A DNA stretch of 64,000 nucleotides from Gerris lacustris (Eukaryota > Arthropoda > Insecta > Hemiptera > Gerridae): positions 44,467,574 to 44,531,573 of the forward strand of contig OX578278.1 of the NCBI GenBank assembly GCA_951217055.1, in the 5' to 3' direction. How positions within the stretch are numbered: the stretch's first letter is position 1; every line of letters begins with the position of its first letter. Below are positions 495 through 52,246 of this stretch, piece after piece. The position numbers and the translations under genes were made by a program. The notes beneath the pieces were generated by a model. The model was not told the origin of the DNA and did no database searches. It saw only the letters and a program-made list of their open reading frames with translations.

Positions 495-725
495 CCTCGC
501 CACTGACTGTTAAACTTGAATTAAGTATAACAAGAGCTCCTACCCCTGAAAATCCGGGGCCTGTTATTTTCTCTCATCAAATATTGTTAGATCAAGGAGG
601 TCCTGAGAGAGTCAAACTTGCTGAAATGTTAAGTGGTATTGAAAATAATGTAACATTTAAATATATATTACCTCGGTTCCTCAAAATACACAGCAGAGGT
701 GCTAAAGTAGTGCCTAGTCTTATGA
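495..725 (+). CDS. Piezo: Piezo exon A: first half of the cap domain
   Basis: This 231-nt exon follows a TTAG acceptor. It opens with two bases that finish a codon and ends with one base before a GTAAGT donor at 726. It encodes the extracellular cap, with the strings [13 protein letters not shown] and [12 protein letters not shown], which match the region of mouse Piezo1 around HLFPKYIRAPNG. An N-V-T glycosylation sequon fits an extracellular position. The open frame continues past the donor only into AT-rich intron. Confidence 0.9.
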
Positions 726-1653
726 GTAAGTTTCTTTCTTTGTATTTTTTTATTAAATTAATTATTTTGACTTTTTAATCTTTCCAATATTTTAATGTAT
801 CTTAGTCAATATAAATTCTTCTTTAGTATGAATAATTATTTATGATGTATTTATTTTGTTATTTTTCCATATTTTAGGTAGTAAATCTCAAGAACCAACA
901 AATGCTTATACTGGTTTAAATGCTACATTAAAACATGAGAGTAACATGTTCTGGTGGGAGATGAAAGGATTATGTGGATACAATTCATTTATTGCTTCTC
1001 TCCCTCTAATGGATTGTAACAATAGCATTGTACTGTACACGTTTAATGATAAAGCATTCCCACCTACTCTTAGTATTATATCTGGCAAAGGGTAAGCACA
1101 TTTATTATTCACTTTACTTACTATCAATTTATTTACAAAAACAAGGGGAAATAAGTAAGATTGTTTCGAAATCAAGATAATTGCATAATCTAGTTAATGG
1201 ATGTTAACATTTATTTAGTTATATTGGAAAGTAAGTCATGGATAACTTTCTAGCTGACTAATTTCCCTATTAATGGAGTTTCCTTCAGAATTTGCTTTGT
1301 TTATGTAAGAAATAGCTTCTTTTTAGCTACCATTTTAAGGGATTTCTTTCTGAGAACCCTTACTATACTCACCAAGAGTTTCTTAATAGAGCAAATTGAC
1401 ATTGTTTTGAGTATTGATTACGATGCAATGGACTTAAAGTAGGATTAGTTTTATTTTAATTATTTATTTAATATTTTAATAGACTATTATTTTGTCTACT
1501 CATATTGTTATTATTTATTTATTTTTAGTTTTATTATTAATTAATATTTTATAATTTATGTATTCCCAAGTGATATTTTAAGCATTGTTTTTATAAAAAG
1601 TGTTGACAATATTCTAAAGTTTTATGGCTTGTAAATCATTATGAAAATAAAGA

Positions 1654-2138: not shown

Positions 2139-5100
2139 AATTTAGTACAACTGTACAGCAGTTGTAAAAATTTGTTGTTGGATGGCAATATCATGAATAA
2201 ATAATTCATTACATAAGATAGACGACACAAATTATGTTTTATCCCGAACAAAATTTCATATGTGAATTTTCATCCATAAAACACAGTTTTATTGCTCTAA
2301 ACTGGCATTTTTAAATCCTTTATATTAACTTCTGTGCCTGTTGTCAAATCTTTGGAGGGCTAACTAAACATCTTCCAGTCATCCAATCTAGCTGATATTT
2401 GGCACCTAGACTCAGTACCAATACTAAAACATTCTATAAAATTAATGAAATAATTAAAATTAATATTAATTTATACCAATATTAAACCTTCTATTTATTT
2501 ATTTATTTAACCAAAATCCATAAATACAAAGGATTTATAATTAAAACTTTGTTTTATGGGCTAGTATTATTATTGTCTCAAGTACAATAAAACTTAAGCA
2601 TGACTATTATTCTTTGTTCTTTTTTAAATTGCTCTTCCTTGTTTTTTGTTATTTATTTATTTTTTTGTTTGTCAAGTTATTTTCTATCTTTGTGATTCTA
2701 TCCTCTGATCCTTTGTACCTTCCTTAACCTCAAGCACTTATGAAAACTTGATCCTTCCTTAAGAATTTCTTGCCAACGTAAGTATATTTTTCCTTAAACA
2801 TTTTTAAACCTTATAATCCATAAATTCTATTGATTTGAAAGTTATTTTGTATTTAAATAAGAATTTTTTTGAACTTAGATGATAGAGGGGTGATAACTTG
2901 ATTTTGTTGTTAAACAGTGGAAGCTACTTAATGTAATCGTGGTTAATGTTATCAACCGCTTAGTGTGGTCAAAATAGCTTGGAACGGCTCTACACCAGTG
3001 TTTATCGTGATCTAAGTTGAGATCGTTGGATTTTTTTTTTACACATTCCGGGGAAACGACTAGAGCGGGGGCACTGGGGGTGTTTCAGTGAAAATCCTTT
3101 TTTCTCAGAAAGTAAACCTCACCTTCCTCCCCCTTTACTCGAAAGACCGCAAACGGTTTTAGTTTCCTACATACCTACTTTACTTATCCATATAATGGCC
3201 ATTCACTTAACACTTTTCTTAACTCTTCAACAGTTTCCTTAACCATCATGCATAGAAGTTGGCCGCCTGGATATGGAACCAGTTGACAATGGTGGTCTTA
3301 GTTCCTTTGAATTTGTGTACCCACCTTTTGTGATATCCGAGCTTTTCTGTGACAATCGTGAAATTCAGCAGCCAATGCACTAATCGCCAATCGTTGATCA
3401 GATCGGAATTATTGGTCTACTTTTTTAACGATTTCTCTGGTCTGGATACTGGGCACATTTGTGCGGCCATTTTTTAAGGCTGACCTTTCCTTCACTCATT
3501 ACTGTAGGTCCTTAAACTAGGCACAACTCCTAATGAATTTGGGCATCTGATGATCGTTTTGCCACAAAAATTGAATCACAGGCCACACTTTGCAACTGGC
3601 GGAAGCAGCAATTTTCACAGACATTGTTGGCTGCATTTCCCGACAGGCAAATGACTACTGAATTAAAACAATAACTTCAGTGCCTTCGGAAACATTCAAT
3701 AGACGGTGCTGCATGCATGACTACTTTGTTGCCTATATAACGGTCCTTACTTTTTTAATATACCTTGGACTTACAACCTTTATGGTAAAATGAGAATATA
3801 AAGGATGGTAGCAATAAGTATAGAAAGGTGGCCATCCTATAGGAACCACTGTTATCTTTGCACCACAGAAAAGTTATTTTATGTCAAAAAAGCGATATAT
3901 TGTTAAAATTTTAAAAAAGGTTAAATTCTCAACACAAAACACCATTTATATTGCCTAGTAATATAAAGTTTAAGTTTTAGTTACATTTCCATAATTTTGT
4001 ATGGTTATTAATTTATCATTTCAGGATTGTTGGTCTTTACACTACATTTGTTATATTGATCCATTCATTCATCAGGCAGTTCTTCACTGGAATATCATTC
4101 AAAATCATGTTTGATGACATGCCATGTGTCGATAGAATATTACAGGTATTCACATTTAAATGTTTTTTGTTTTTGTTTTTTTAAAAAGAAAAAGGCAAAT
4201 TGACAGTAATTAACCCTTTCGGTACTGAGGTAGAAATCAAAAGTAGGCTTCCACAGACGGGGCCGTATTTTCAGACCTGCCTTCCCCAGCCTGAGTCGTT
4301 TCAACCCTCACACAAAACTATCCATTCTTCAACGCTTTCACACTATTTATTTTATATCTCCTACATTTTTTATCATATTAGGATAATTCTTGTTTTATTA
4401 CTTTTTTACATTCATCTATAATTATTTTTTTATTTTTAATTAACTAAAATTTTTAATTTTAGATGTTAATTTAATAATTTTCAATTCTATATATACATAA
4501 AAAAAAAGTAATGTACATTTTATGAATAACTGGTATTTTTATATATATATAAATAACTTTTTTTCATTTCTTTATTATTTTTGACATATTTCATATTATA
4601 CAATACATTGATAATTTTTCAAGCATGACGACAAAAATAAATAATAATAGTAAGTCCTAGCCTTCTTTCGTATCCAGGCTTTGGACCGGCAACGGCGAAG
4701 TTAAACTTTTTTAATTTTATTTAATTTAATTTTTTTTGTTGAGTTTATTGAAACATAAACTTAATATCTAAACCATAGGGGACAAAAAGAAAAAATATGA
4801 TTAAACTACTCTTTTTTACATAAATCGTATAAAAAAATTGTATAAAAATTAAGTTAAGTTTTTAAGAGACATAAATATTATTTCGGAGAAAAAAAAAAAA
4901 GAAAAAAAAAGCTTTATAAAAAGGGAAAACGCTCCAAGGATGAACGTAAGAAGGTACAATAGGCTTTGACCTGCGCTGACCTCATTTGGCCTTAAAAAAA
5001 TATTACGCGGGGCCGGCACAAGTAATATGAGTCACCCGCCCTGCTAGAGTTGCAACCCCTTTCATTTTATTCTATCACTGAGAAATATTAACCCCAGCGA

Positions 5101-5559
5101 CACCTAGTGAGCCTATTATTTACCATTGTACATCATTCTAGTTCCGATAGATGGCGTTAGGAGTCACATGCGACGTCTAGTAAGGCTTCTATTTGAAAAC
5201 ATACATAAGAAAACCTCAAAACGTCTATAGACGTCTGTAGGCTGTGGAAGGCACTTTTTGATTACGTCCATAGACGTTTACAGTCTAATAAAGGCACTTA
5301 CTAATTACGTCCATAGACGTCTACAATGCCGAAAGGGTTAATGTCCAGACCATTAATCTTATATTTAATAAATCTTATTGTCCTTTTATTTTAGCTCTGT
5401 CTCGATATTTATTTGGTCCGAGAAAGCGGTGAATTGGATCTTGAAGAGGATCTGTTTGCCAAATTAATCTTCCTCTACAGATCGCCTGAAACGTTAATAA
5501 AGTGGACCCGGCCACCTGAAGAATCAGGTGATGAAGAGGCAGACAACGCTCCTCAATAG
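495..5559 (+). CDS. Piezo: Piezo mechanosensitive ion channel, C-terminal part (4 exons)
   Basis: Piezo proteins are very large trimeric plasma-membrane cation channels opened by membrane tension. The window holds the last 242 residues, joined from 495-725, 878-1091, 4025-4145 and 5395-5559. All junctions are GT-AG and the phases agree (A ends with 1 nt, B with 2 nt, C on a codon boundary). The order is the extracellular cap domain (exons A and B), the pore-lining inner helix (C) and the intracellular C-terminal domain (D). Recognition rests on near-invariant Piezo strings: IVGLY at the helix start, [12 protein letters not shown] at its end, and [23 protein letters not shown] and IKWTR in the tail. 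Against mouse Piezo1, exon C aligns residue for residue from about 2466 to 2505. The gate pair L2475/V2476 is I-L here, M2493/F2494 are kept and E2495/E2496 are D-D. The 5' part of the gene lies before the window. Confidence 0.95.
878..1091 (+). CDS. Piezo: Piezo exon B: second half of the cap domain
   Basis: This 214-nt exon lies between an acceptor (ATTTTAG at 871-877) and a donor (GTAAGC from 1092). It contains FWWEMK, equivalent to the conserved E-W-W of the vertebrate cap, and [10 protein letters not shown], equivalent to FSDKVSPPSL. Two sequons (N-A-T, N-N-S) fit the extracellular side. It ends with two bases (GG) of a glycine codon. Both candidate next exons, at 4025 and at 16208, complete that glycine (GGG or GGA), so this is the branch point for alternative 3' ends. 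Confidence 0.93.
1655..1714. repeat. (ATT)n microsatellite
   Basis: About 20 uninterrupted ATT units directly follow an AATAAAGATATT string, as is common at the 3' end of retroposed sequences. Confidence 0.95.
1762..1900 (+). mobile_element. tRNA-derived SINE copy (family S1), degraded head
   Basis: A B-box-like GGTTTGAATCCCAGG at about 1831 is followed by a body (ACATGTTTCACACTGATGATC). The same body recurs at 9855 and 16480 on this strand and near 38300 on the other strand. The head (GGCGTAGCCGTTAATG) is a weak A-box. Four dispersed copies of one arrangement support a SINE family. Confidence 0.65.
2045..2132. repeat. (TA)n microsatellite, 88 bp
   Basis: This is a pure TA dinucleotide run. 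A frame reading through it gives a meaningless Ile-Tyr repeat and is not a gene. Confidence 0.98.
2920..3770 (-). pseudogene. Degraded Tc1/mariner- or pogo-like transposon fossil
   Basis: This stretch is less AT-rich than its surroundings. Read on the minus strand in broken frames it gives fragments such as [11 protein letters not shown] and AAEFHDC, which resemble the DNA-binding and linker part of mariner-type transposases (LGYRKVCARWVP-like). Stops and frameshifts are frequent. An inverted-repeat-like start (CAGTGGAAGCTACTTAATG) is seen near 2917, but I could not place a matching partner. The family assignment is weak. Confidence 0.3.
4025..4145 (+). CDS. Piezo: Piezo exon C: canonical pore-lining inner helix
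   Basis: This 121-nt exon (1 nt plus 40 codons) lies between TTTCAG (ending 4024) and a GTATTC donor. It encodes the last transmembrane helix, which lines the pore, and the start of the cytosolic tail. It has the conserved IVGLY start, hydrophobic F-V-I-L-I core, R-Q-F-F and [13 protein letters not shown] end. The acidic pair D-D sits where mouse Piezo1 has E2495/E2496. An exon of identical length and phase lies at 16208-16328. Confidence 0.95.
4214..5337. mobile_element. piggyBac-type non-autonomous element in Piezo intron C-D
   Basis: TTAA target duplications (4210-4213 and 5338-5341) flank inverted ends CCCTTTCGGTACTG and, on the opposite strand, CCCTTTCGGCATTG. TTAA plus CCC at both ends is the piggyBac signature. 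No transposase is present. The right part (about 5215-5330) is a short tandem repeat with a period near 50 bp, built around the self-complementary ACGTCTATAGACGT. Confidence 0.8.
5395..5559 (+). CDS. Piezo: Piezo exon D: canonical C-terminal domain and stop
   Basis: The acceptor is TTTTAG (ending 5394) and the frame starts on a whole codon. The 54 residues contain [31 protein letters not shown] and IKWTR, which are among the most conserved residues of all Piezo proteins and form the intracellular neck. P-E aligns with mouse P2536/E2537. After this, an insect-variable acidic tail leads to TAG at 5557-5559. Confidence 0.95.
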
Positions 5560-8500
5560 AGAAATCAATACACGTCCATTAACATTTTGCCCAAATTATT
5601 TACGCACAATGTTGTTTTGCTGTGATAACCATCCAAGATTAAGTGATCTTATTTAATATTCTTTTAATTAAAAACGTAAGATCAAAATTAGAGGGAATAA
5701 TATGTGAATTATTCTTAAAGATTAATATCGAAATTAATCTTAATGATTCCCTTTTAAATAATAATAAATTTAATTGATAGATTTAAGTATTATTAACTAC
5801 GGGAAACAGACAGTGAAAAATACACTCCCGCGCCGGGATAATGTCATAAATATTGACTGTCTAAATGTATATGAATATTGAAAGCTTGGATTCGGGAGTA
5901 GTTATCGATTACGGCAGTTAAAAATCAGCTTAGTTGGCCAGAGCATCTGTACTGGAAATACGGGAATCCCAGTGCGGGAGTGTATTTTTCACTGTCTGTT
6001 TCCCTTAGTAAATAATAATTATAATTTGATTTAAATTAAAATTTAAACTTTCCGTAGTATGAAAACTACCAATAACTTAAAATTGATAGATTTAAGGTAA
6101 ATGGCAAACTTTTGTGATGTTTAAATAGATAAAATTTTCTAAAATTCTACAATATTTGAAGTTAAGGAATGAATGTTTTAGGAAGCAATATTTGAAGGCT
6201 TATTTTTTAGTGGCAAACTGCCATCGGATCAAAGGGAAAAACATTTGTAACTTGGATAAGATTGGTTCATGATTTATCTTTAAGTATTTTTTTTTTTACA
6301 TACATTAAACTTTTTATTTAAAATACTAATAACTTCAAAAGTGCCATTATTAATTTACCTACCTTAAATATTGTGTTTCTGACTAATTTTTGTGAAATTT
6401 GAATCCAACTAAGTTTGAAGAGATTCCTCATGAGGTAATATATACTTGTATATTTATTATAAACAAAGATGCTTTTAAGTATTTTTTTATGTATACTTAA
6501 GAAGCATCTTTGAATTGATATATTGCTTTTAAGGGTACTCCCCAAGTTTTGTCCTAATTCAGAATTATGAAAGAGCCTATGCAGCTGTTGCAGGCTTTTA
6601 ACACAAGATAAAGATACAACGGAATTAAGATTACTATGGAAGTGTTGATTGTGTCTGTGAATACTAATTATAATTATAGAGTTGTTATAAGAGGTTAGAG
6701 TTTGATCAAAAACAATACAAAAGTTAAGCAGAAAGTAAGTTTCTAGAATACCGCTGTAGCTGTAACCTAATTTATAAATTATTTTTAGCATCAATTGAAC
6801 AATCTTATTTTATTTTTTCCTCGTAATAAAGGCTTTCTTAAGCTACAATGGAGAGGCATACATTATTTAAAATTGATGTTAATTTTAAAACATTTGCCTT
6901 TTTAAAAACCACACAATACCTGAACTGGAATTTTCCAAATTTTTATTTTGCTCTAATTTTGTAATCTTATTGTATTTCTTGTGGTCTAGACTGGAAATAG
7001 AAGTAATAGAATAAGAACTACTATATAAATTTATCTGTGGAAGTTACTTCGCATATAAGAATTCTTATGGAAACATACTTTTAGGTAAATTTATTTTAGG
7101 TTTTGTTTTTTAGTCTATTTTTTGAATAAAATGAAAAATCCAGTTTTCAAAACTATATTTATTTTCATTATAAGATTAGTTGTTGTTCAATTTAATTTTA
7201 TTTAAAATCATAGTTAACAACATATTTTTGCTAACAAGATAAGTATTGGGATGTAAGGTTTATTTTGAAAGGACACAGAGGAATTATTAACTAAGAAGTT
7301 TGAATCACATTTCTTGGATTAGTATAATTGTATTGCAAGCCCAATCATATATCATATTTAAAATTTAAAAAAAAGTTTTAATAAATTCAATCACTTTTTT
7401 AAGGAAATCTAAATAAGAGTTGTATATTTTAATTTTTTTTTTGTCTTTTATTAGGATTCGGAGACTATAACATTTTACGAGTACATTCAACCTACTCTTA
7501 ACAGTATTCTTTGTCCCTTGTTATACCCCCTATTGTCTACAAAAATTGATTATATACTCGTATTTTATTTGTTTTATAAAAAAAAAAAAAAATATGTAAA
7601 AATGGTGTAGGTATATTACAAAAAATGATTTCTTATAATGGCTTTTGAATAGCAGAATGCATTGACCATATTTGGAATGAATATGTAGGAACATTTTTTA
7701 TTCAAAAAAATATAATATGGGAATATTTTCATGTATGCATGGCTCTTGATATTTGATTTAAATTAAAATTTAATGAATACTACCAAAAACTTAAAAATTG
7801 AATTTAAATAGCAAGTAAATGAAGTGGGATATTTTATATACATGTATTAGCTGTCCACCATCTTATTCTATTAATTTAAGACATAATTTATCAGAATTAT
7901 TTGTTTGGTAAGGATAACATCTTGTGGCTAAATAACTTTAGTAGAAATGACAAATTCATTTCAAGGTGTTTCTTATAGAAAAGTATGTTAAATGTGTAGG
8001 GCACTTATTTCTTTCACTTACTATTGATGACAACAAATATAAGGTTTTAAGACATGAGTGTTGTACTCTACAAAAGTAATTTTTTCCAGAGAGCATTCCT
8101 CGTTCTTTTTCTATACCCTGTATGGAACTATAAATAAATTTAAAATATCCATGACATTTATTTACTTATTATTAGTTAAATTTTATTAAAATATCAAGCA
8201 TTGTCCATACTTTTAATATAACTTTCTTTTTTGTAATGCCACATACCCTATCTGCTAAGCCGCCATGTAGTGAAAAGAAATAATTAACAATTTGTTTTAT
8301 GCGCCCTATTCAGCTAAATGTGACCATTGCTCAAAGTTTTGGCGTATTTAAAGGATCAATAACTCTACAATAATATTATACTTATTTTATTTTTTTTAAA
8401 AATGTTTATTTATTTATTTGTTTTGTTTGATTTTTTTTTTTTTAATATTTTAAAAAGATTTTATTTTATTTTTTACAATAATTTACTATATTAAGTTTTA

Positions 8501-15569: not shown

Positions 15570-16207
15570 TAATTGTGCATTTATATGCATGTTTATTGTG
15601 TGCCTTAGTTATTATTAATGGATTTTCCGATGATTGAAAAATTGACCCATCGCAAATCAGTACTGAAATTTTCACATATGAATTATTATGTGGAAAAAGG
15701 AATATTAAATATTCTTTTTCATGAGAGTAATCCTATGTATTTTTTATATCTGGATTTTTTTTTTTTATTAAAAATGTTAATCAGATAACAATAATTTTTA
15801 ACAATTTATTAATAATGTTTATCTACTAATTGAATCATGTCTAATTAAAATTTATTACTATTGGAAAAAAATTGCTTCCTATTTTTAATAGAAATACTAT
15901 TTTAAAAATTGTATTTAAAATTGTGAATGCAAGTAAATGAATATATATTTATATTTATTACTAATATATATTTAATGTATTAAATATATTATTTAATTAA
16001 AAAAAAATATTGTCCATAAGACTTACTCATGCCTTTTAAAATAAAAATAAAAGAAATGTAATTATTTGATATATTAAAATGTTTTTGTCTTAATAAACTG
16101 TATTTCTTATTATATTTTATAAACTAACTTGTTAGTCACAAGCTACTTAAAAACCTTATCTAATAAAATGTACAATTTTGTATTTTAACAGTTTTTCCAC
16201 TTTTCAG

Positions 16208-16328
16208 ATTGTTTGGACTGCAAATTTTTGTAATTGTGGTTTTCTTCAGATTTATGCGAAGACTATTCCATGATATTTCATTTTATATACCATTTACAAT
16301 GATGCCAAATGTTGAATTTATTTACCAG
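16208..16328 (+). CDS. Piezo: Alternative Piezo exon C': variant pore-lining inner helix
   Basis: The acceptor is CCACTTTTCAG (ending 16207) and the donor is GTATTG (from 16329). The exon is 121 nt (1 nt plus 40 codons), exactly the length and phase of exon C at 4025. Its first base completes the glycine codon left open by exon B. It keeps 15 of 40 residues of exon C, including GL, R at position 17, ISF, MP, V and the final Q. It differs at functional sites: where mouse Piezo1 has M2493, E2495 and E2496 it has P, T and M. The hydrophobic gate pair is V-V, so that property is kept. There is no stop or frameshift despite high divergence, which argues for selection. It is probably an alternative terminal exon of the gene upstream. 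It could also be the remnant of a tandem paralogue, although no cap-domain copy was found next to it. Confidence 0.85.
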
Positions 16329-16336
16329 GTATTGCA

Positions 16337-16371
<35 letters not shown>

Positions 16372-17072
16372 TGATTGTAGAAAATTGATATTTAAAATAG
16401 TTTTGCGCAGCCAGGTGGTTTGCTTGAAGCTGCTGGCCCAACGCTGATATATCCGGTGTGAATTCCAGAGAGGTAAGATGTGTTTTACACTGCTGATCAA
16501 ATCAAGCAAATCTAAGTGGTGTTCCCTCTGTCCTTCAACTCCTATATCAAAGGGGAGAGAGAGAGAGAACAAAAAATTCAAACTAATTGCAATCTATCTA
16601 TATCATTAAATGGTATGAATGCCAATAAGATTATTTTTATCTGTTATTCTTCTTTATTATTAATCTAATAAAATAAATTTAAAATTGTGGAGTAGTAGGG
16701 TCTAAAATTCATATGATAGTTCAAATTGGTGTTTGGTGGTCTAAAGCCAAGTACATATTAGGATTCTTTATTCGGAATTTGTCGCAAATTCTTCGTCTGG
16801 ACTCATTGTCATAGGTTGAGTCCCACCTTGCATCCCAGCTGAGTCTGCAACAATCAATCCGAACAAAGTATCCCAGAGTGAAGCTTAAGGTACCTGTTTG
16901 GCCCAAACATCAAACTCAGTTCTCAGAAACGTGTTAACAACAATGAGGAAAGTGGCTGATAACTCTGTGCTGTAATGTTCATAATACTATTGTCATTCAC
17001 AACAAGAAAAAAAGTATGCCTTATAATAAACTTTAAATTAACTGTTTTCTTTTCTTTTTGTTTGTTTAAAAG
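16329..17072 (+). other. Intron between alternative Piezo exons C' and D'
   Basis: This 744-bp intron starts with GTATTG, has a T-run soon after, carries an S1 SINE copy at about 16408-16530 and ends in a long pyrimidine tract and AAAAG. Its other frames are not gene-like. Confidence 0.75.
16408..16530 (+). mobile_element. tRNA-derived SINE copy (family S1)
   Basis: It shares the family body (TTTTACACTGCTGATCAAATC) and a B-box-like GGTGTGAATTCCAGAGAGG. The head GCGCAGCCAGGTGGTTTGCT resembles an A-box. Confidence 0.6.
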
Positions 17073-17270
17073 CTTTGTCTTGACCTTTATAAAGCAAGAG
17101 AGTTAAAAGACTTTGTTCTTGAAGAAGATTTGTATTCTAAACTTATATTTATTTATCGATCGTCACACACACGTATCAGGATCACACGTCTGCCCCAGAT
17201 AAGATGTTATTACAATAAACAAAGTCTGACTGCATTTTCTGGAATAACCAATCCTAATAGGCGTCATTAA
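17073..17270 (+). CDS. Piezo: Alternative Piezo exon D': variant C-terminal domain and stop
   Basis: It follows a pyrimidine-rich acceptor (TTTGTTTAAAAG) and starts on a whole codon, as exon D does. It encodes 65 residues and ends in TAA at 17268-17270. Over the first 39 residues 23 match exon D, including LCLD, RE, LEEDL, KLIF, YRS and the final TR. The conserved SPET is replaced by SSHT, so the positions of mouse P2536/E2537 become S-H, and IKWTR becomes IRITR. The last 26 residues have no counterpart in the first copy. The frame is intact throughout. Exon C could also splice to D', because both junctions lie between codons. Confidence 0.85.
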   Translation, partial: LCLDLYKARELKDFVLEEDLYSKLIFIYRSSHTRIRITRLPQIRCYYNKQSLTAFSGITNPNRRH

Positions 17271-21144: not shown

Positions 21145-21438
21145 AACTTTTCAGTTTGTGTTCGTTCGTCGGCGGAAGTGTTTGTGTAGTTCGTGTCCAG
21201 TGTCATGTTTTCTTCATGTTTTCGAACGCATTGATATAATACTCATTTTTTTCGGTTTGATTATTTTTTTAACTGTTGATAACAAGTGAGGTTCTATTTG
21301 TTGGTTAATTTCTAAAGACGTGTGTGACGTTGAATGCGATGGTCTGCGAGTTGAACTTTCTGGTCAAACAGGAAAAATGCCATTGGAGTTAACTTCGCAT
21401 CTCGCAGTTTTCAGTGAATCAGATCGTTATTTTAAAGC
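21145..21438 (+). promoter_or_regulatory. Likely jub core promoter and 5' leader with upstream ATGs
   Basis: A TCAGTTT initiator-like string lies at 21151-21157 in a locally GC- and CpG-richer stretch. The leader contains upstream ATGs at 21205, 21216, 21334, 21339 and 21377. The first four open short frames that close before the main ATG. The last (about 29 codons, ending 21466) overlaps the jub start in another frame. The transcription start is inferred, not shown, and a leader intron could remove some of these. Confidence 0.45.
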
Positions 21439-23642
21439 ATGGACCCTTATTTATCGAAACATTTAAAGAGTAGTTCAGATTCGGCCCGGCCAAACTCCGA
21501 AGTTAGTATGAAAGGGGGCGGGGAGTCTGGTTACGGGAGGATCACTCAAAAACAGGTAGAGGATCCCGTAAGATCGGGGAATGTTTCGTACGGCACTGGT
21601 AACAGCAGTTATCCTGTAAATAGTATGTGCTATGACGTTATCACAGGTAGACCTAGATCACCTATGAATATGGCAAACAAAGTGGAGGTCAATACAAGGG
21701 TCAGGTCCAGTTCCGCGTTAGAAGGTTACTTGGACATGTCCAAGGCTCAGTCCACAGATTACAAAGGATACGACAGAGGTCATGTTACAAGTTCGTCTAA
21801 ATTCCCGTCCATGAGTAGACAACTCGATTCCGTCACTAATTCTTTGAATTCCGTTAGTCTCAGCGATAAAGACTTGCCAAGATATCAGAACGGTTCTAAT
21901 CAGCAATTAGACCACAACAAGTATTACAATGCATATCTTAGTAAACCCATAAGTCCGACTAACAGCTGTTCAAGTCGAGATTCCAACAGCCCCAGGTCGA
22001 GCATGGCTGCTGTGCCCCAGTACGATACTAAAACTTCCCCTCTTTACGAGAATGTAGAGCTGTACAGTAGAAATCAGAAACAACCTTACTACCAACCTCT
22101 TGCAGACCCTAAAGTCAGCCCTAGAACAAGCTACATTGATAACGTTTATGAAAATACTGGTTTTAGAAAGGCACAGCCTCAGGTGCCTGTTGGTATGAAG
22201 TATAAAGATCCTCCGTATGAAGCTCCTCCTGTTTATGAAAACATCCAAGAAATGAGAGGACTTCAAAGTAGAGCTTCTCCACAGATGGCCTTGCCTATGA
22301 CACCTCCTCTTCATCCGCCACCTCCTTACCCAGGACAAGTGTCAAATGTTCCGTCTCCACAGCAGCCAAGGCAGGCGGTGAACAGTTCTCTCAGTCATGC
22401 TTCTGCTTCATTGACTTATGCTTCTGCACCTCTTTCTCACCCACCTGTAACCTCCAGCTATACGGAAACAATGCAGAGTCACAGCTCCTTACTTAATCAC
22501 CCTGTTCCCCCTATACACCATGCAAAATCTCTTAGTAACTCGACGTCTCTTAGTCATACCACCAATATGAGCCACAATTCTTCTTTAAGTCATAACTCGG
22601 CCATGAGCAACAATTCTGCCCTTAGCCATAGTTCAGCCATGAGCCACAACTCATCAATGAGTCACCCTAGTTCAACAGTATCTTCTCTGGGCCATGTGGG
22701 AGTGTGTATGAGCCAGAGTTCGGTAGCACTTAGCCACGCTACGAGCGTATCTACTCCCTTAGGACACGCTGGTCGACTTGATCGAAGCCAGCAACAGACC
22801 CATGCTCCTGTGTCTTCACGCTCAGTAAGTGATCCCCCTACACGTGCATCTACTCAACAACCTGCTCCTGCACCAGCATTTCAGGCTTTGCCACTACAGT
22901 CTAAACTACCCAACCCTGAGGTTGTTCCTCCTCCTAGCCCTACTCCTTCTCTTATAAAGAACATCCAAGCATCTGGAAAGACTCTTCTTCCTTACAACAT
23001 CACCCCACCTCGACCTATGGTAACTTTTATTCTTCGTGTTTTCATATTTAATTTGTTAGGTTTTTTTAGTTTATTATTTTTACAGCCCATTTAAAATACC
23101 AAGTTAATTAAAATACCCTCCATGGGCTGTTGCACCACTGAGTTACTTTGTTAGTTAGTTTTTGGTTCCATATTAATTTCAACCTTCTGGGCCAAATTTG
23201 GATGGTTTGTCGAAAGTAGCCCACATATGGTCACACATTAATTTCAACCGTCTGCACTCTTTAAATATTGCTTAATTGCTACTTTTATTTATATAAAAAC
23301 AATAAAACAAAACAATATTAATAGATTTATAAAGGAGGGTGAGGTGGGAGTGAATTAAATAAATTAAACAATATTGGGTTTGAAAAGCAAAACATCATTA
23401 AAGTACACGATAAGATGCGAGAGAGTTCTATGCCACACTTATTGGCAGTCTATTTTAGTTTATACTTCTTTTATGAGGGTATTTATTTTTTGTTCTATTA
23501 GATTCTCCATGTTAAAGAATAGACTAATTCTATTTTTTTTTTTTTTTGTAGGGGCCTAGTGAAGCTGAAAGGAAGATTGAGGAGCTGACTCGTCAACTTG
23601 AGGAGCAAATGGAAAAACAGGAAGAAGAAGGGGAGTATTTCG
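21439..23642 (+). CDS. jub: Ajuba/LIMD1-family LIM protein, N-terminal part (2 exons, continues beyond window)
   Basis: Ajuba proteins are junctional scaffolds that restrain the Warts/LATS kinase in Hippo signalling. Two exons are seen: 21439-23019 (527 codons) and 23552-23642. The ATG has A at -3 and G at +4. Exon 2 gives GPSEAERKIEELTRQLEEQM, a run of E and K, then EGEYF with a split glycine. This helix followed by EYFG is the segment just before the first LIM domain in insect Ajuba proteins and is the basis for the name. The pre-LIM part is disordered. It has three Y-E-N motifs (residues 203-205, 237-239 and 266-268), a PPPPY WW-type motif (293-297), Ser/His-rich repeats (about 350-440) and a proline-rich end (about 475-527). 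The LIM domains are not in the window as far as I can see. Zyxin-type relatives are less likely because of the EYFG junction. Confidence 0.88.
23020..23551 (+). other. jub intron 1
   Basis: This 532-bp GT-AG intron between codons starts with GTAACT and ends in a long T-tract and GTAG. The frame running past 23019 into it adds AT-rich nonsense. Confidence 0.85.
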
Positions 23643-50104: not shown

Positions 50105-52246
50105 CAGTAGCGTACACAGAAAAAAATTTCGGGGGGGGCCAACTTTCTTGAGTGACGATATGCGGGTTTAGCATACCCCATAATTTATTATAACTGTAAT
50201 CCCCCCCTCCCCTTTAGCACAACAATTTCAATTTCTAACCTTATTTTGAATATAATTAAAAGCCTATAAGATAACACCTAACAAATTGACACACTTATAA
50301 AAATTACATAGAGGCTGTAAACTTTATAAAAACTCAATGAATTGGGTTTTAAATTACATGTTGCAATCAATACAAAACAATTTCACCTCAGTAAATAGTG
50401 TGGCACATAGCTTCCTCGCGTACAATATCATATACTTTAACGATGGTCATAATTAGCCCACCGTTGGTCCCATATAAGTTCCATCATCATTGAGCACCCT
50501 TTTGCTTTTTTTCCACAGGTGCACACACATACATTTATTTACACCTATGTCTTTAAAAATACTCATATGATTTGTTATAAAGCTGATCGAAAGTAGCTAA
50601 CAGATCCCCAGATTAATTTCAACCGTCGGCGCTCTTCAAATTTTGCTAAATTGATACTTTAAAACATGTTAAAAATCAAATAAATTTTGACTCATTTAAA
50701 AACGAAGGGAAAATTAAATAAATATGAAAATAAAAGGATGTGAAACCATAAAATCATTAAATTATACGAAATTGGACGCGAGGAAGCTATATGCATGAAT
50801 TAAAGTATCAATTTAGCAACATTTTAAGAGCGCAGAAGGTTGAAATTAATCTGGTGCTAACTGCAGTTTACTTTAAACAAACAATTAAAATTTCATAAAA
50901 ATCAGATGATTACTTTTGAAGATATAGGGGTAAATAACTGTGTGTTTGTGCGCATGTGGAAGAGAAACAAATGAATGCAAAAGATTGAAACTTATTTGGG
51001 ACCAGCAATGTTATGACCTGGCTAATTATGACTTATCATAAAAATTTCATTAAAATAGGACCAATAGTATTTAAGACATGTTGGGTCATAAAATTGATAA
51101 ATTATGTTCCACAAAAATTGAGTGGCAGGCAGAGGTCGTAAACGGATTTCTGTTTTGGATTTTTTTAAAATCTAAGACATAAAAATTGTACGTTCTTTAG
51201 AGCTATCACATATCTTCCGTTCTCTTTGGTAAGCTTGGAAACAAAAACGTGCTCCAAACTGCCTTTCCGGGCCCGGAAAGCAATTCGACTGATTTAGTTT
51301 AGGAATCCAAGTTCAATTTAATGCATTTAATTCCATCGGCAAACATCCGCGTCCTGCCGACAATCAGGTTGATCAAGTTTAATTTTAAGCGCCATCGGAA
51401 AAAATCTAGCCGACCCGGGAATTGGACCGATTTAATTTATGCATCCTAATTTAATTCAATGAATCTAATTCCATCGAAAAAAATATTGGCCCAGACGACA
51501 ATCGGGTTAGTGTTTTTAATTCCATCAGCGAAAATCCGGGCCCAGTCGACACTCCGGCCGGTATAGTGTACAACGTTTTCAACTCCATCGGCAAAAATCC
51601 GGGCCCAGGCGACAATTGGGCCGGTATAGTGTAAAACGTTTTCAACTCCATCGGCAATAAACCGGACCCAGCCGACAATCGCTGGTATAGTGTACAACAT
51701 TTTCAACTCTATCAGCAGCAAAAATCCAGGCCCAGCCGAGAATCGGGCCGGTATAATGTTTAACGTTTTCAACTCCATCTGCAGCAAAAATCCGGGCCCA
51801 GCCTACAATCGGGCCGGTATAGTGTTTAAAGTTTTCAACTCCATCGGCAAAAATCCGGGCCCAGCCGACAATCGGGCCGGTATAGTGTACAACGTTTTCA
51901 ACTCCATCGACAGGAAAAATCCGGGCCCAGCCGACAATCGGGCCGGTATAGTATTTAAAATTTTCAACTCCATCGGCAAAAGCCGGGCCCAGCCGACAAT
52001 CAGGTCGGAATAGTGTTTAATAAATTTTAATTCTATCGGAAAAATCCAGGCGGAACTGGCATTTTGTGATAATTTAGTGTATATACACACCCTAATATAA
52101 TACTAAATTAATTCCTGTTATCAGAAAATATGAATGCATCTGTCATTAGTATGTTTGTTTGGTATTACATGTATGGCGGGTTCAAGTTATGTAATCATTT
52201 CGGGGGGGGCCAGGGCCCCTTGGGCCCCCCCCTGCGTACGCCACTG
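50105..52246 (+). mobile_element. hAT non-autonomous element, family H1 (2142 bp, perfect duplication)
   Basis: GTCTGATT occurs exactly at 50097-50104 and 52247-52254. The ends are CAGTAGCGTACACAG and, inverted, CAGTGGCGTACGCAG, with G- and C-runs just inside. This defines the H1 family and its hAT membership (8-bp duplication). The interior carries the same minisatellite as 34471-37076 in opposite orientation. No transposase was found. Confidence 0.9.
51500..52040. repeat. ~62-65-bp minisatellite (about eight units), inverse of the 34.6-kb array
   Basis: Units contain CCATCGGCAAAAATCCGGGC, then CCAGCCGACAATCGGGCC and GGTATAGTGT. Start-to-start spacings are about 62, 61, 67, 65, 64 and 65, with small insertions of CAGCAA type. 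Open frames on both strands through the array (about 95-113 codons, repeating NPGPADNRAGIVFN-like) are products of the repeat, not genes. Confidence 0.9.

What the first reader, a model, noticed from the sequence alone, without database searches (positions are those of the whole stretch)
16208..17270. A second, intact pair of terminal Piezo exons 11 kb downstream of the first
Seen: 16208-16328 and 17073-17270 encode a second version of the inner helix and C-terminal domain, with the same exon-C length (121 nt), the same phases and good splice sites. There is no stop despite only 15/40 and 23/39 residues shared with the first pair. No copy of the cap exons lies next to them. Known: most Piezo genes end in one constant, extremely conserved terminus. 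Inferred: exon B (ending 1091) can join either pair, making two channels that differ only in the pore helix and neck. I am not aware of such a terminal exon switch being described.
Basis: partly seen in the sequence, partly recalled or inferred. Interest (0 to 1): 0.92.

Follow-up and report, generated by a model that had tools for sequence, protein, structure and literature searches.

The report
Second set of Piezo ending exons
An insect Piezo (touch and pressure channel) gene carries, 10 kb past its normal end, a second intact pair of exons for the pore helix and inner mouth of the channel; the glassy-winged sharpshooter has a comparable second ending, so one gene may make channels with two different pores, though no RNA evidence was available.

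Summary
Exons C2 (16208-16328, 121 nt) and D2 (17073-17270) encode a second Piezo inner helix plus C-terminal domain, with good splice sites and the phases of the canonical pair C1 (4025-4145) and D1 (5395-5559). Joined to exon B they score 133 bits against Pfam Piezo_cap (canonical 195). A genome-wide Piezo_cap search found 4 matches, each at this locus; it missed some of the locus's own exons, so it is not exhaustive. Codon-position identities to the canonical pair are 44/57/27 of 79: the copy is old and was under protein-level selection. C1 and C2 together, or neither, break the frame; one at a time keeps it, as in mutually exclusive exons. Homalodisca vitripennis also has two endings: a canonical one (P0168) and a divergent one (P0023) that keeps 30 of 30 highly conserved columns; C2-D2 keeps 21 of 30. 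One tree pairs P0023 with C2-D2, without decisive support. Most likely this is a real alternative terminal exon pair, fast-evolving here; a slowly dying duplicate is the main rival. No RNA was available, and the sharpshooter annotation lists its second ending as a separate 100-residue protein, so the switch itself is inferred.

The parts
495..725 (+). Piezo exon A (cap domain), shared
   Evidence: open frame and AG/GT borders; 3' border 724 or 725 not settled
878..1091 (+). Piezo exon B (end of cap domain), shared donor AGG|gtaagc
   Evidence: its 5' border (878) not tested further
4025..4145 (+). canonical exon C1: inner helix and start of C-terminal domain, 121 nt
5395..5559 (+). canonical exon D1: C-terminal domain, stop TAG
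16208..16328 (+). second exon C2: inner helix and start of C-terminal domain, 121 nt, same phase as C1
17073..17270 (+). second exon D2: C-terminal domain with a longer unrelated tail, stop TAA; an AATAAA begins 61 nt after the stop

Best explanation
C2-D2 is a functional alternative 3' end of the Piezo gene. Exon B is spliced either to C1-D1, with polyadenylation shortly after 5559, or past both to C2-D2, with polyadenylation shortly after 17270. The reading frame permits C1 or C2, never both or neither. The product keeps blades, anchor and cap and exchanges the inner helix, the neck and the tail. Because the exchanged segment holds acidic neck residues that affect cation selectivity in mouse Piezo1, the second isoform should differ in permeation and block, and could mix with the first in trimers. 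Shown: anatomy, phases, past selection, no second cap found. Inferred: splicing, polyadenylation, expression, channel properties.
For: Phases and lengths match and both products are open. No in-frame ATG precedes C2 before the stop at 16164, so a protein holding all of C2 needs an upstream exon. The 4 Piezo_cap matches in the 937-Mb genome are at this locus. Codon positions 44/57/27 of 79 identical. A neutral branch long enough to give 57/79 at position 2 gives on average 2.4 stops; no stop together with position 1 at or below 44 occurred in 1 of 3000 runs; with an assumed indel rate of 10% of substitutions, no indel has a chance of about 2e-4. Residues identical to C1-D1: 21/30 at columns conserved in at least 90% of 102 distinct relatives, 17/49 elsewhere, Fisher p 0.002. 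H. vitripennis holds both a canonical ending (P0168) and a divergent one (P0023) that keeps 30/30 of these columns. The best tree of 47 chosen rows pairs P0023 with C2-D2; separate duplications are 13.4 log units worse, AU p 0.12.
Against: No RNA evidence of any kind. P0023 is annotated as a separate 100-residue protein whose first residues look like intron, so that annotation did not join it to the Piezo body. C2-D2 lost 9 of 30 highly conserved residues (Y5Q, D36E, L39Y, I45L, L47K, V48A, L67I, P71S, E72H) and has the longest branch, 1.77 against 0.34 for P0023. No test settles that P0023 and C2-D2 share one duplication: no alternative tree was rejected by AU; (other model, 106 rows) trees pairing each with its own canonical copy scored 1.8 and 8.1 log units above what the free search had found. 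Counts of shared residues do not single P0023 out (8th of 128 by fraction). The changed residues are not unusually conservative (P 0.15). At equal overall nucleotide identity a neutral copy would lack stops in 3% of runs.
Confidence: 0.6

Rival explanations
1. C2-D2 is a decaying relic: the terminal exons were duplicated long ago, the copy was used for a long time, and it is now little used or silent in the window's species, not yet broken.
For: 9 of 30 highly conserved residues lost and the longest branch of the tree; no transcript evidence; the sharpshooter copy is not joined to Piezo in its annotation.
Against: No stop, frameshift or bad splice site in 319 exon bases; conserved columns are still kept more than others; position 2 much more conserved than position 3.
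Confidence: 0.25
2. C2-D2 belongs to a separate short transcript with its own upstream exon or promoter, making a stand-alone pore-helix/C-terminal peptide that could act on the full channel.
For: The H. vitripennis annotation lists such a 100-residue protein.
Against: No in-frame start upstream of C2 before a stop in the window; a start at the internal methionine, residue 16 of C2, would cut the inner helix. No Pfam domain of another gene on the + strand between 5.56 and 25.0 kb (domains only). A start in an intron is a common annotation artefact for an orphan exon (general knowledge).
Confidence: 0.08
3. C2-D2 is the last remnant of a complete tandem second Piezo gene whose other exons were lost, diverged beyond the searches, or not assembled.
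For: Piezo paralogs exist in insects: Drosophila Piezo-like proteins with their own cap exon turned up in the hits (P0101, P0103). The genome search missed exons A, B and C2 of this very locus, so a diverged cap could escape it.
Against: No cap exon beside it by tblastn or Pfam and no other Piezo_cap match in the genome.
Confidence: 0.07

Closest known systems
Piezo1.1 (exon 30) and Piezo2 splice variants (exons 18, 19, 33, 35, 40) of mammals
   Same: One Piezo gene makes channels of different stretch sensitivity, inactivation or calcium permeability by splicing (PMC12490864, passages read)
   Different: Those are internal exons; the ones placed by the passages read lie in the lateral plug and intracellular domains, not in the inner helix, neck and C-terminus
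Mutually exclusive and alternative last exons in general, for example in insect myosin heavy chain or the calcitonin/CGRP gene (recalled)
   Same: Alternative exons of one gene used one at a time; last exons with separate poly(A) sites
   Different: None for Piezo was seen in the listings searched here; here a whole pore module would be exchanged
Drosophila Piezo-like (Pzl; name recalled) and vertebrate Piezo2 paralogs
   Same: A second, divergent Piezo terminus in one genome
   Different: They are genes with their own cap; here only the two last exons are doubled

Membership tests
Piezo terminus (Piezo_cap family, PF12166) | Pfam model match over the curated cut-off | tested here: met
   B+C2+D2 133.4 bits against a cut-off of 26.9 (B itself adds to this score); D2 alone 49.7 bits in the genome search
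Piezo terminus (Piezo_cap family, PF12166) | Residues conserved in at least 90% of termini (30 columns of 102 distinct rows) | tested here: inconclusive
   21 of 30 kept by C2-D2, 30 of 30 by P0023 and by C1-D1
Mutually exclusive exons | Same phase and interchangeable length | tested here: met
   C1 and C2 both 121 nt, both in frame after B; D2 in frame after either
Mutually exclusive exons | Including both or neither breaks the frame | tested here: met
   B-C1-C2-D2, B-D1 and B-D2 run into stops
Mutually exclusive exons | Both versions spliced to the same upstream exon in RNA | not testable with these tools
   no RNA reads on hand; no near-identical database protein among the 120 hits listed by each search
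Conserved alternative exon | Orthologous second pair in related species at the same place | tested here: inconclusive
   P0023 in H. vitripennis is a second terminus; common origin not decided, place in that genome not readable

The most novel reading that the evidence does not exclude
In a group of sap-sucking insects the Piezo gene carries a switchable pore module: an alternative terminal exon pair, shared since before the window's species and the sharpshooter parted, that replaces the inner helix and neck, removes in the window's species the acidic pair matching mouse E2495/E2496 (canonical DD to TM) and alters the constriction (mouse M2493, P2536, E2537 to P, S, H), giving channels or mixed trimers of different ion selectivity from one gene.
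Probability: 0.35. Interest if true: 0.82.

Novelty: new variant of a known kind. Interest (0 to 1): 0.6.

Why it matters
The Piezo splice variants I found in print tune the channel from outside the inner helix. A natural exchange of the pore helix and neck would be a ready-made test of which residues set Piezo selectivity, block and inactivation, and would show how one Piezo gene can give two channel types. It also warns that annotations can miss terminal exons lying 10 kb past a gene's apparent end, or list them as separate short proteins.

Tried and rejected
A third terminal exon about 100 kb upstream (L015:8121-8249, E 0.037): noise, the frame has three stops and the E-value rises to 0.58 with composition correction. 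Counting shared unusual residues as proof that P0023 and C2-D2 are orthologous: rejected as proof; by fraction P0023 is 8th of 128, although it ranks first when rare residues weigh more (24.4, next 20.7). The rarity score was tried after P0023 had caught the eye. Trees: 79 columns are too few; neither nor the AU test could reject anything. A long-protein search for full-length Piezo isoforms ending in D2 found 2 candidates, none scoring; it can reach only close relatives. The locust PIEZO splicing paper (PMC13383693, passages) concerns exon 1. Searching for a second Piezo body with PF24871 and PF24874 did not complete.

Rows dropped: searches list only their best 120 of 491 and 233 hits; 171 distinct proteins were in hand, of which one search used 128, 114 distinct rows, 109 plus the window's two, 104 plus two, 45 chosen by me plus two, 102 distinct rows (P0023 and the window's two left out).

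Full report
The place. The window is C3:44467574-44531573 of a 937-Mb genome of 69 contigs. Its first 6 kb hold the 3' end of a Piezo gene on the + strand; the gene continues upstream (a cap exon lies at window position -4132 to -3950). The canonical last 52 columns are 94% identical to those of Homalodisca vitripennis (P0168), and C1-D1 groups with P0168 and two sequences of psyllid type (P0002 is Diaphorina citri; SH-aLRT 94), so the species is probably a hemipteran.

The second pair. C1 and C2 are both 121 nt, with the donors CAG|gtattc and CAG|gtattg; the four acceptors have 71-82% pyrimidines in the tract examined; AATAAA begins 61 nt after the D2 stop and 204 nt after the D1 stop, which in so AT-rich a region proves little. 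Joined to B, C2-D2 matches Pfam Piezo_cap with 133.4 bits against 195.3 for the canonical pair.

Reading frame. B-C1-D1, B-C2-D2 and B-C1-D2 are open; B-C1-C2-D2, B-D1 and B-D2 run into stops. So the frame demands exactly one C exon. There is no in-frame ATG before C2 back to the stop at 16164, so C2 cannot simply start a protein of its own; the first methionine inside it is residue 16.

How many Piezo loci. The genome-wide search with Piezo_cap scored 5 candidates and gave 4 matches, each at this locus: the upstream cap exon, C1, D1 and D2. It did not list exons A, B and C2, so it does not see everything. tblastn with exons A+B and with relatives' termini over the window and 120 kb upstream found, apart from weak noise, only these exons. 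Searches for the blade domains elsewhere in the genome did not complete (see Tried and rejected).

Age and selection. Identity between the two pairs by codon position is 44, 57 and 27 of 79. Third positions are near saturation, second positions are not: the pair is old and evolved as protein. Under a neutral branch just long enough for the second-position value, 91% of 3000 runs had a stop, and a run without stops and with position 1 as diverged as observed came up once. At equal overall nucleotide identity the chance of no stop was 0.031 (20,000 runs). The mean similarity score of the changed residues is not unusual (P 0.15); that measure does not support selection. Hydrophobicity of the first 16 residues of the inner helix is kept (2.03 and 2.29). 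The residues kept are preferentially those conserved in the family: 21/30 against 17/49 (p 0.002). These tests speak of the whole history since the duplication, not of the present.

The sharpshooter. Among 171 proteins in hand from two searches, most of them unnamed, H. [quoted passage not shown] P0023 begins with eight residues that read like an intron end (MEHYMFCS; my reading) and then runs through a C-D pair; it is 51/79 identical to C1-D1 and 40/79 to C2-D2, which are 38/79 identical to each other. It keeps all 30 highly conserved columns. It is thus a second terminus, constrained, in another species. With C2-D2 it shares DFVLEEDL.SKL; the motif DF[VI]LEEDL occurs in 2 of 171, P0023 and P0078. 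Of the 171, none was closer to C2-D2 than to C1-D1 in the 120 compared. The best tree of 47 rows, unconstrained, pairs P0023 with C2-D2; C2-D2 with its own canonical costs 6.4 log units (AU p 0.33), both alternatives inside the hemipteran group 6.3 (0.40), two separate duplications 13.4 (0.12). A wider tree gave the pair with support 79; with support 81, but there constrained trees with other groupings (P0023 with P0168, C2-D2 with C1-D1, all six together) scored 8.1, 1.8 and 6.0 higher than the free one. One duplication is my better guess, not a result. If the duplications are independent, the terminus was doubled twice.

Likely effect. By the table row of mouse Piezo1 5z10 (query 2-79 to 2467-2544), position n equals mouse 2465+n. 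The gate residues L2475 and V2476 are I, L in C1 and V, V in C2; R2482 is R in all. The neck differs: E2487 is G in C1 and D in C2; S2491 is K and Y; E2495/E2496 are D, D in C1 and T, M in C2; M2493, P2536 and E2537 are M, P, E in C1 and P, S, H in C2. P0023 differs from C1 at 2487 (K), 2491 (I) and 2495 (T) and keeps M, D, P, E at 2493, 2496, 2536, 2537. So the two second endings share only the loss at 2495. [quoted passage not shown] E2495/E2496 may bear on calcium selectivity, conductance and block (PMC7796548, passage), and on ruthenium red block (PMC8042031, passage). So the second ending, if used, should alter permeation. This is inference from alignment.

Literature. The Piezo splice variants described in the passages I read concern internal exons (PMC12490864; PMC8924262). 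No paper on alternative terminal Piezo exons was among the listings of searches (at most 20 listed of up to thousands held), and one search listed none; passages of six papers were read. The library holds open-licence papers only, so this is no proof of absence from print.

Verdict. The exon pair is real, old and was selected as protein; a second terminus also exists in the sharpshooter. That it is an alternative ending of this gene is the best explanation (0.6), with a fading duplicate as the chief rival (0.25). The junction is untested.

Noticed in passing
P0062, P0076, P0082, P0086 (tree): Four Piezo termini form a group (SH-aLRT 100) apart from nine others such as P0054, yet rows of both groups end in similar tails (..DIDES/T..AEK.LRK). 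They may be second endings or paralogs in one insect order, perhaps flies.
   Followed up: partly
P0013 and P0078: Two different Piezo C-D pairs both list 6694 bases as longest contig, perhaps the same contig; P0078 has the DFILEEDL motif. Equal contig lengths also occur otherwise (P0004 and P0012, 1985).
   Followed up: no
window 5805-5831 and 5974-6000: 27-base perfect inverted repeat starting 245 bases after the D1 stop, like the ends of a small transposon (MITE) just past the canonical coding end.
   Followed up: partly
window 21436-23091 (+): 552-residue open frame, rich in S, P and PPPPY, no Pfam match: probably a large exon of the next gene.
   Followed up: partly
window 51446-52016: Overlapping long open frames on both strands with a repeated unit (..NPGPADNRAGIVFKVFNSI..), a tandem repeat.
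   Followed up: no
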